Assembly: GCA_946183925.1 (NCBI GenBank)
Contig: CAMHDS010000010.1
Span: forward strand, 1 to 52,006
From: an uncultured Fibrobacter sp.
GTDB taxonomy: Bacteria > Fibrobacterota > Fibrobacteria > Fibrobacterales > Fibrobacteraceae
Length of the DNA stretch: 52,006 nucleotides
Direction of reading: 5' to 3'
Position numbers and translations under genes: made by a program. Under the pieces are notes generated by a model that worked only from the letters and a program-made list of their open reading frames with translations, had not been told where the DNA came from and ran no database searches. This document shows, piece after piece, positions 11,879 to 12,580 of the stretch; position 1 is the stretch's first letter; each line of letters opens with the position of its first letter.

Positions 11879-12580
11879 CTATTTGACCAAAATTTGCCGA
11901 ACCTTTGTCACATTCCCAACAGAAACACGAACAAGGTACAATCCAGAAGGGATGGACTCAAAATTCACAGAATGATTAAGAGATCTCTTTTTTAAGTTAC
12001 CCATCATGTCAAAGACAAGAATACTGACATCGGGACCTTGTGAATTTACCACCAACATGTTATCCGAAACAACAATTTCAAAGCCTTCGGCAGGCATGGG
12101 GCACAATGTCTGCGTCTCTCGACTTCCCGAACTAGACCCAGCGCCTTTTTCAGAGGAACTAGAAATTACACTTTCCGAATAACTCGACTCAATGTTTTGT
12201 GAAGAACTAGATTCTGCTATTTCCGAAGAACTTGACTCAATGTTTTGCGAAGAACTGGACGCATCATCCATAGAACTTGAACTTTCACCATACAAGCGTT
12301 GAACAAGGTGGAGGGTCGACTCTTTCTCTATATTGTAATCTGCCAAAGTATGACCATCTTCCAGTTGTTTCCCAGCAAAGATTAGTCGTTGTTCCTCCGG
12401 AGGAATGTTCTCCTTTTCCTGTATTTTCTCCTTGACCGCATCTATGGAATCACTAGGTTCCACCTCCAACGTCAAAGTTTTTCCCGTCAGCATCTTTACA
12501 AAAATTTGCATCGCACAGACATTCGTTGCCACTACGAGAATCAACAATGCAGCAATTCTTTTGTAAAACAACCCTTTCAT
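11879..12580 (-). CDS. Exported ubiquitin fused to serine-rich linker and sorting-type C-terminal domain
   Basis: This is a 233-residue protein. Residues 1-23 are a signal peptide ending VCA, so cleavage would leave Met24 as the first residue. Residues 24-98 are a ubiquitin domain: MQIFVK, LTGKT, IPPEEQRLIFAGKQLEDG and KESTLHLV are all present. Aligned by eye without gaps, about 60 of 76 positions match human ubiquitin. All seven lysines (6, 11, 27, 29, 33, 48, 63) and the Leu8/Ile44/His68/Val70 surface are kept. The terminal RLRGG is replaced by RLYGE, so conjugation through Gly76 looks impossible without change. Residues 99-165 are a linker of SSSS blocks. Residues 167-233 (SILVFDMMGNLKK, SIPSGLYLVRV, RQILVK) fit a type IX secretion sorting domain. 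A GGGAG ribosome-binding site and a TATATTTG element lie upstream. B. fragilis BfUbb is the nearest known precedent. A horizontal origin is inferred. Confidence 0.93.
   Translation of the reverse strand: MKGLFYKRIAALLILVVATNVCAMQIFVKMLTGKTLTLEVEPSDSIDAVKEKIQEKENIPPEEQRLIFAGKQLEDGHTLADYNIEKESTLHLVQRLYGESSSSMDDASSSSQNIESSSSEIAESSSSQNIESSYSESVISSSSEKGAGSSSGSRETQTLCPMPAEGFEIVVSDNMLVVNSQGPDVSILVFDMMGNLKKRSLNHSVNFESIPSGLYLVRVSVGNVTKVRQILVK

What the first reader, a model, noticed from the sequence alone, without database searches (positions are those of the whole stretch)
11879..12580. Secreted bacterial ubiquitin with near-canonical sequence
The mature N-terminus is a complete ubiquitin: by eye about 60 of 76 positions equal human ubiquitin, with all seven lysines, Met1 and the Leu8/Ile44/Val70 surface kept. 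A signal peptide ends exactly before Met1 (VCA/MQIF). Bacteria normally lack ubiquitin. The known precedent is B. fragilis BfUbb, a secreted ubiquitin homologue that antagonises other strains. Here a different export design (Ser-rich linker plus sorting-type tail) carries it. It may be an antagonistic toxin or act on rumen ciliates, fungi or host cells. Horizontal origin from a eukaryote is inferred from the sequence similarity and A/T-richer codons.
Basis: partly seen in the sequence, partly recalled or inferred. Interest (0 to 1): 0.96.

Follow-up and report, generated by a model that had tools for sequence, protein, structure and literature searches.

The report
Surface-displayed ubiquitin in Fibrobacter bacteria
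A Fibrobacter-type bacterium carries a gene for a near-canonical ubiquitin, a protein usually thought of as belonging to animals, plants and fungi, fused to an export signal and a secretion tail that likely place it on the cell surface, where it would probably act against neighbouring microbes; similar ubiquitins with predicted export signals turn up in many other bacteria.

Summary
Window 11879-12580 (minus strand) encodes 233 aa: signal peptide, ubiquitin starting exactly at Met1 (60 of 76 residues as in human; seven lysines and Leu8/Ile44/Val70 kept, Gly76 lost), a disordered Ser-rich linker, and a type IX secretion (T9SS) sorting domain by HMM, with a matching predicted fold (best Foldseek hit RgpB CTD). 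It is no contaminant: the gene sits at one chromosomal site in eight genomes of the genus, and that site is empty in others. At least 10 of 80 genomes of the genus carry an exported-type ubiquitin. The allele was recently exchanged between species (ub dS 0.03-0.05, flanking genes 0.22-0.63). The closest ubiquitin found outside the genus is in a gut bacterium (66/76), against 62/76 for the best eukaryotic unit retrieved, so direct eukaryotic origin is not supported. Ubiquitins with a signal peptide flush to Met1 occur in many phyla with lineage-specific anchors, mostly without a conjugatable GG end. Function is inferred: most likely a tethered, non-conjugatable ubiquitin used in antagonism like BfUbb; mimicry aimed at eukaryotes is the main rival. 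New variant of a known kind.

The parts
12512..12580 (-). signal peptide, residues 1-23 (MKGLFYKRIAALLILVVATNVCA), type I site flush with ubiquitin Met1
   Evidence: read from sequence; helix 3-19 in the model; identical in most close family members; cleavage not measured
12284..12511 (-). ubiquitin domain, residues 24-99, ends RLYGE
   Evidence: Pfam PF00240 1.5e-29; 60/76 to human; model pLDDT about 93, best Foldseek matches are solved ubiquitins at rmsd about 1
12119..12283 (-). Ser-rich linker, residues 100-154, length-variable in relatives
   Evidence: pLDDT below 50 over 97-164; linker lengths mostly 48-71 aa, from 18 to 103 apart from one truncated row
11882..12118 (-). T9SS type A C-terminal sorting domain, residues 155-233
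   Evidence: TIGR04183 33.7 bits vs cut-off 23 over 176-233; modelled alone, pLDDT 85, seven strands; Foldseek best hit RgpB CTD, further T9SS substrate CTDs
11879..11881 (-). stop codon
9494..11851 (-). downstream co-directional receptor-like gene (CarboxypepD_reg-like domain, below Pfam's cut-off), 27 bp after the ub stop; resident of the site, found in 79 of 80 genomes of the genus
12886..13641 (+). carbon-nitrogen hydrolase, other flank of the insertion site
   Evidence: PF00795; beside the receptor gene in genomes without ub

Best explanation
The gene encodes a ubiquitin behind a signal peptide that ends at Met1 and in front of a Ser-rich linker and a T9SS sorting domain; the protein is predicted to be exported by T9SS, to be tethered on the cell surface with its Met1 end outward, and likely serves in antagonism against competing bacteria, as the secreted ubiquitin BfUbb does. 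Steps shown by sequence or model: domain order, loss of the conjugating glycine in the family, T9SS-type tail, SprA in the genome, syntenic residence with empty sites, recent exchange between species. Steps inferred: export and anchoring by T9SS, exposure of the ubiquitin head, binding of an essential target on or in a competitor. My separate estimates: ubiquitin plus T9SS cargo about 0.97, surface display about 0.8, antagonism about 0.4.
For: Domain architecture and fold. SprA-type translocon 1124 bits in the own genome. None of the 81 family members with a readable Ub start keeps RGG, so no Ub-conjugation function. At least 10 of 80 genus genomes carry an exported-type Ub and the site is empty in close relatives: a patchy accessory gene, as reported for BfUbb. 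Gene-restricted exchange: dS 0.03-0.05 against 0.22-0.63 in flanking genes (identity profile). Among six close alleles the Ub domain has 8 replacement to 1 silent polymorphic codons, signal peptide plus tail 4 to 8 (Fisher p 0.024, post hoc). BfUbb precedent: signal peptide flush to Met1, terminal Gly absent, synthetic protein inhibits B. fragilis strains (PMC5705921). One genome found in the search of L040's family holds four tandem genes with double-glycine, bacteriocin-type leaders, three of which carry a Pfam ubiquitin domain. Across 74 distinct bacterial Ub domains the Ile44 patch is not specially conserved, which weakens the eukaryotic-receptor rival.
Against: A tethered ubiquitin cannot diffuse as the free 76-aa BfUbb does; I know of no processing step that would free it. 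No partner gene shared by most loci was found, though BfUbb's authors suggest it needs no immunity protein (PMC5705921). The PorU-like sortase scored below its cut-off (390 vs 420 bits), and Pfam's version of the sorting domain is also below its cut-off (24.2 vs 27). The selection signal rests on 21 polymorphic-codon counts from six related alleles, and Ub replacement changes do not exceed neutral expectation (p 0.69). BfUbb's C-terminal Cys (PMC3352274) is missing. In the Fibrobacter family itself the Ile44-patch consensus is human-like, which a eukaryote-facing role would also predict. The leader matches of the four tandem genes are below the bacteriocin model's cut-off.
Confidence: 0.42

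Rival explanations
1. Eukaryote-facing mimic: the displayed ubiquitin would engage ubiquitin-binding or ubiquitin-sensing proteins of rumen ciliates, fungi or host cells (adhesion, survival after engulfment, immune modulation).
For: Near-canonical sequence, 60/76 to human, lysines and Leu8/Ile44/Val70 kept; Ile44-patch consensus human-like in the Fibrobacter family; the Ub of G085 (L011) falls among eukaryotic units in the tree, suggesting more than one capture. Extracellular ubiquitin is a known subject in animals (PMC10892293, listing and abstract start only).
Against: Across 74 distinct bacterial Ub domains the Ile44 patch (0.71) and its rim (0.73) are no more conserved than non-core sites (0.79), the core being 0.93 (patch and core lists recalled). 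Many carriers are named as environmental bacteria. A surface-tethered protein does not by itself reach the cytosol, where most ubiquitin receptors are.
Confidence: 0.27
2. Inert tip domain: ubiquitin is used only as a very stable beta-grasp head on a stalk (adhesive, spacer or protease shield), without any ubiquitin-specific partner.
For: Core conserved (0.93) while functional surfaces drift; the head is combined with very different C-terminal parts (of 72 proteins: autotransporter 9, GLUG 5, T9SS 4, IPTL-CTERM 4, SLH 1); no partner gene shared by most loci.
Against: Best-segment identity to the query stays at 53-96% over the 79 loci of many phyla (itself selected by exact patterns), more than a mere scaffold needs; dN/dS of the Ub domain against L004 is about 0.2; gene-restricted exchange points to selection on the gene.
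Confidence: 0.2
3. Assembly contamination or a chance or dead gene.
For: The own genome is a fragmented MAG of 81% completeness; one relative (L042 = G127) carries a frameshift in the ub gene.
Against: Same site with Fibrobacter flanks in eight genomes, empty sites elsewhere; contigs up to 366 kb; 83 clusters of relatives, 81 with a readable Ub start; dN/dS about 0.2 against a diverged ortholog.
Confidence: 0.01

Closest known systems
BfUbb of Bacteroides fragilis (PMC3352274, PMC5705921)
   Same: Ubiquitin homologue in a gut bacterium, signal peptide ending exactly before Met1, conjugating glycine lost, present in only part of the strains.
   Different: BfUbb is a free 76-aa secreted protein with a C-terminal Cys and shown antibacterial activity; here the Ub is the N-terminal head of a 233-aa protein with Ser-rich linker and T9SS tail and no Cys end; activity unknown. 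BfUbb is 63% identical to human (48/76, PMC3352274), this one 60/76 = 79%.
T9SS type A cargo proteins (TIGR04183; e.g. RgpB CTD)
   Same: Signal peptide, C-terminal sorting domain above the NCBIfam cut-off, predicted fold matching RgpB and other T9SS substrate CTDs, linker-tail type shared with many proteins of the phylum.
   Different: The cargo is a ubiquitin, not an enzyme or large adhesin.
'Ubiquitin family protein' of Ruminococcus albus 7 plasmid pRUMAL01 (WP_013483628.1)
   Same: Signal peptide flush with a ubiquitin, 75% identical to the window's Ub, in a complete plasmid record; R. albus is a rumen species (recalled).
   Different: Different C-terminal part, no T9SS tail; no function found in my searches (titles and abstract starts).
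Eukaryotic (poly)ubiquitin
   Same: Sequence and fold (rmsd about 1 in the best matches).
   Different: No RGG end, export signals, not conjugatable, no repeat array.

Membership tests
Ubiquitin family (PF00240) | HMM match above gathering score and ubiquitin fold | tested here: met
   102 bits vs 25.4; Foldseek best matches are solved ubiquitins
Conjugatable ubiquitin | C-terminal Gly75-Gly76 exposed or processable | tested here: not met
   RLYGE then SSSS; RGG in 0 of 81 family members
BfUbb-type secreted bacterial ubiquitin | signal peptide ending exactly before Met1 | tested here: met
   sequence; cleavage itself not measured
BfUbb-type secreted bacterial ubiquitin | mature protein is a free Ub of 76 residues | tested here: not met
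   ORF continues 134 residues into linker and sorting domain
BfUbb-type secreted bacterial ubiquitin | C-terminal Cys in place of Gly | tested here: not met
   Glu at 76; BfUbb Cys reported in PMC3352274
BfUbb-type secreted bacterial ubiquitin | inhibits related strains | not testable with these tools
   needs culture assays
T9SS type A cargo | C-terminal sorting domain by HMM | tested here: met
   TIGR04183 33.7 bits vs cut-off 23; Pfam PF18962 24.2 bits is below its cut-off of 27
T9SS type A cargo | CTD-like beta-sandwich fold | tested here: met
T9SS type A cargo | T9SS translocon in the genome | tested here: met
   SprA TIGR04189 1124 bits, cut-off 200
T9SS type A cargo | PorU-type sortase in the genome | tested here: inconclusive
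   NF033707 389.9 bits, cut-off 420; the control rang, below the cut-off, in two unrelated genomes
T9SS type A cargo | surface location | not testable with these tools
   needs fractionation or proteomics

The most novel reading that the evidence does not exclude
Exported ubiquitin is a general, overlooked class of bacterial interaction protein: a ubiquitin of eukaryotic ancestry is repeatedly given a signal peptide flush to Met1, stripped of its conjugating end and mounted on whatever anchor the lineage owns (T9SS, autotransporter, IPTL/XrtH-type, SLH, even bacteriocin-type double-glycine leaders), passes between phyla within the gut, and works as a ubiquitin-headed weapon against neighbouring cells.
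Probability: 0.35. Interest if true: 0.92.

Novelty: new variant of a known kind. Interest (0 to 1): 0.78.

Why it matters
In the papers I could reach, a ubiquitin made and secreted by a bacterium is the story of one species (BfUbb). Here a near-canonical ubiquitin is built as T9SS cargo in Fibrobacter, exchanged between species as a single gene, and it is one member of a broad set of ubiquitins with export signals in records of Gram-negative and Gram-positive bacteria and of archaeal MAGs, including named strains and a complete R. albus plasmid. If the reading holds, the question 'what is extracellular ubiquitin for in microbes?' becomes testable in tractable strains, and the natural series of anchors, surfaces and C-termini can separate antagonism from eukaryote-directed mimicry.

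Tried and rejected
Direct capture from a eukaryote by Fibrobacter: rejected as the nearest step; no eukaryotic unit among those retrieved (lists capped at the 120 best per search) exceeds 62/76 identity, while gut bacterium L036 has 66/76. The tree has only 72 columns, an unsettled bootstrap and 11 starred forks of 110; the gut group (25 of 26 rows that I labelled gut; support 91/95, not starred; several long rows) supports but does not prove one origin.

Transfer by phage or plasmid: no match in 50,697 phage records, one viral contig without evident signal peptide (L178, 55%), three plasmid records of 72,556. Not shown for Fibrobacter.

Dedicated partner, immunity or processing gene: ORFs around 76 loci were compared all-against-all. 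Apart from the Ub genes, seven clusters reached four or more loci. I judged the four largest (41, 21, 16 and 10 loci) to be overlapping-frame artefacts or loose unions from one example sequence each, not member by member; the rest are a gene of about 335 aa in 6 loci, a response-regulator-like gene in 5 and an oxidoreductase-like gene in 4 (names by eye). Operon with the receptor gene: the receptor is in 79 of 80 genomes irrespective of ub, so a dedicated pair is unlikely.

E2 enzyme search in the own genome found nothing, but its control rang nowhere, so absence is not shown. Receptor mimicry through a conserved Ile44 patch as a general rule: not supported (six near-copies or fragments dropped, residue lists recalled). 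BfUbb itself was not retrieved: 399 genomes of the family of L101 (titled Prevotellaceae) gave 5 matches, none identified as BfUbb, and a PDB search with the Tenacibaculum Ub showed no entry named as bacterial ubiquitin among the 60 of 389 shown.

Literature: ten searches in an open-access library. No listed title or abstract start describes a Fibrobacter ubiquitin or an anchored bacterial ubiquitin; one search found 64 papers holding both words, of which 20 were listed and one (PMC11205867) was looked into by passages (nothing relevant). Subscription papers are not held. Jiang et al. 2024 on BfUbb (10.1038/s41564-023-01541-5) was seen only as a reference in two papers; that it reports an essential peptidyl-prolyl isomerase as target is recalled, and one search found no held paper with both terms.

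Full report
1. Observation. The finding is real and on the minus strand. ORF 12580..11879 encodes 233 aa. Residues 24-99 (window 12284-12511) are a ubiquitin: Pfam PF00240, 102 bits, 60 of 76 residues equal to human, all seven lysines and Leu8/Ile44/His68/Val70 present (read from the sequence). The preceding 23 residues are a signal peptide ending V-C-A directly before Met1. The C-terminus reads RLYGE instead of RLRGG, so Gly76 is lost. A Ser-rich linker follows, and residues 176-233 match the T9SS type A sorting domain TIGR04183 (33.7 bits, cut-off 23), while Pfam's PF18962 stays just below its cut-off (24.2 vs 27). It is the only match found with the Ub query in the own genome, a MAG of 2.76 Mb and 81% completeness.

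3. Identity of the host and absence of contamination. G066, in the same genus as the window's genome, has the ub gene on a 135,964-base contig, the length of the named record of Fibrobacter sp. UBA4375 (L033), so the genome is Fibrobacter-type. In the genus at least 10 of 80 genomes carry an exported-type ubiquitin (G000, G065, G066, G073, G074, G085, G107, G114, G124, G127; the table of matches was cut, so weak ones may be missed). Flanking synteny is kept in the named loci L032-L035, L042 and L068. Of the 30 loci taken around the downstream receptor gene (of 79 genomes with it), 8 have ub between the nitrilase-type gene and the receptor gene, 18 have no ub and a nitrilase homologue whose alignment starts 45-112 bp from the receptor gene, 3 have neither in the stretch held, and one is cut off by the contig end. 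Empty sites include close relatives (G109, G108, G115). The other two Fibrobacter Ubs lie elsewhere: G124 (49% identical over the protein, same kind of linker and tail) and G085 (735 aa, Ub with RGG followed by a GLUG motif, next to uvrB).

4. Evolution. Against L032-L035 the ub gene has dS 0.03-0.05, whereas six genes on both sides have 0.22-0.63 where alignable (for L034 and L035 only the best-matching part of the ub gene was aligned). Nucleotide identity is 0.968-0.996 over 11850-12599, mixed (0.85-0.99) at 12600-12849, and 0.82-0.95 in most other flanking 250-base windows, with further high windows at 13850 and 14350. Against the more distant L068 the ub gene has dS 0.89, like its neighbours (0.78-1.17). 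I infer that the gene is an old resident of the site, lost in some lineages, and that one allele was recently exchanged between species. In six close alleles the Ub domain has 8 replacement and 1 silent polymorphic codons, the signal peptide 0 and 3, the tail 4 and 5; Ub against the rest gives p 0.024, but Ub replacement does not exceed the neutral share (p 0.69) and the rest is constrained (p 0.002). Long-term dN/dS of Ub against L004 is about 0.2. A protein search with residues 99-233 gave 87 proteins, of which I took 83 as family clusters and dropped 4; 81 hold the Ub start, with 39 distinct Ub domains, none ending in RGG.

5. Origin. The window's Ub shares 66/76 residues with a Clostridiaceae record (L036), 60 with human and at most 62 with any eukaryotic unit retrieved (159 units; the listed hits of both Ub searches). 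In an ML tree of 116 rows the gut-labelled bacterial Ubs group together (25 of 26 rows, 91/95, not starred), with rows of Fibrobacterota, Bacillota, Bacteroidota, Verrucomicrobiota, Lentisphaerota and Actinomycetota, some of them long and unsurely placed; G085's Ub falls among eukaryotes. The gut labels are mine, from record titles and from recall of what RUG and RGIG stand for. Eight further rows were left out as near-copies, fragments or odd alignments, and 40 of the eukaryotic units plus human were used. Most loci were recruited by exact patterns such as EVEPSDSI and EDGHTLAD, so S22 and H54 are biased; the pattern-free searches (16 of 398 and 5 of 399 genomes of two families, some matches weak or without signal peptide) also show Ubs with signal peptides.

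6. The wider class. One search returned 79 loci from genomes of bacteria and a few archaea, mostly MAGs. In 63 of 80 ORFs tested a hydrophobic segment and a -3/-1 site lie directly before the Ub Met1 (a heuristic of mine; the 80 include eight Fibrobacter loci). C-terminal parts differ: of 72 proteins scanned, matches (E up to 0.001 Pfam, 0.01 NCBIfam) were autotransporter 9, GLUG 5, List_Bact_rpt 5, XrtH-type 5, T9SS 4, IPTL-CTERM 4, SLH 1. Of 82 Ub domains 6 keep RGG by position, and L089 keeps it too by eye. Carriers include named strains (for example Paracidovorax oryzae ATCC 19882, Rhodoferax lacus, Pseudomonas kuykendallii, Marinobacterium iners, Thiohalocapsa marina, Tenacibaculum larymnensis) and plasmid pRUMAL01 of R. 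albus 7. Tenacibaculum's is a free Ub ending in Cys, as reported for BfUbb (PMC3352274).

7. Mechanism. Shown: architecture, loss of GG, exchange. Inferred: export, tethering, and function. BfUbb is the only tested relative I found: secreted, Met1-flush signal peptide, no terminal Gly, potent against B. fragilis strains (PMC5705921: abstract, passages and Discussion seen), and able to bind human E1 in vitro (PMC3352274: passages seen). One search shows that across 74 distinct bacterial Ub domains the Ile44 patch (0.71) is no better kept than non-core sites (0.79; core 0.93), which speaks against a general role through eukaryotic Ile44 receptors; in Fibrobacter the patch consensus is human-like, so for this protein the eukaryote-facing rival stays open. 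A cluster of four small genes with double-glycine bacteriocin-type leaders, three with a Pfam ubiquitin domain above the cut-off (25.6, 54.9 and 58.1 bits vs 25.4), in G273 (leader matches to CTB-family bacteriocins are below that model's cut-off, and no export gene was recognised by eye in the 14 kb) lends indirect support to antagonism. I commit to a tethered BfUbb-like antagonist at about 0.4.

8. Novelty. A secreted bacterial ubiquitin is known (BfUbb); a T9SS-tailed one of this design, its gene-restricted exchange, and the breadth of exported-type bacterial ubiquitins did not appear in the listings of ten library searches (see Tried and rejected). Hence new variant of a known kind.

Noticed in passing
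L179:6497-8003 (G273:C22, about 30.5-32.0 kb): Four tandem small genes with a double-glycine bacteriocin-type leader (..SEEELELVIGG); three carry a ubiquitin domain above Pfam's cut-off, among what read as housekeeping genes (tRNA synthetase, ribosomal proteins; by eye).
   Followed up: partly
L104:7944-8228: Tenacibaculum larymnensis encodes a signal peptide plus a free 76-residue ubiquitin ending in Cys, the closest BfUbb-like design seen.
   Followed up: no
L160, L161: Ubs with signal peptide and a distinct signature (KHITLEVEPTDRIED...LQDYSIQKD) that I recall as parabasalid-like, suggesting a separate capture from a gut protist.
   Followed up: no
L043, L048, L051, L054, L060, L084: A gene of about 335 aa (two copies seen; SET-like by recall, not tested) recurs near the Ub gene in six loci, Burkholderiales among them.
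   Followed up: no
L047, L050, L079, L085, L091, L102, L106, L178: Ub-like heads without an evident signal peptide, mostly in actinobacterial records and one viral contig; possibly phage structural proteins.
   Followed up: no
L042, around base 605 (= G127:C142): The Fibrobacter succinogenes RUG12637 copy of the ub gene is frameshifted near the end of the Ub domain.
   Followed up: no
window 13850-14099: A second short tract with unusually high identity (0.98) between species beside lower-identity flanks.
   Followed up: no
window 12640-12880: Intergenic repeats (ctagcccctagat-type, by eye) beside the insertion site, similar to text in the empty site of L124.
   Followed up: no
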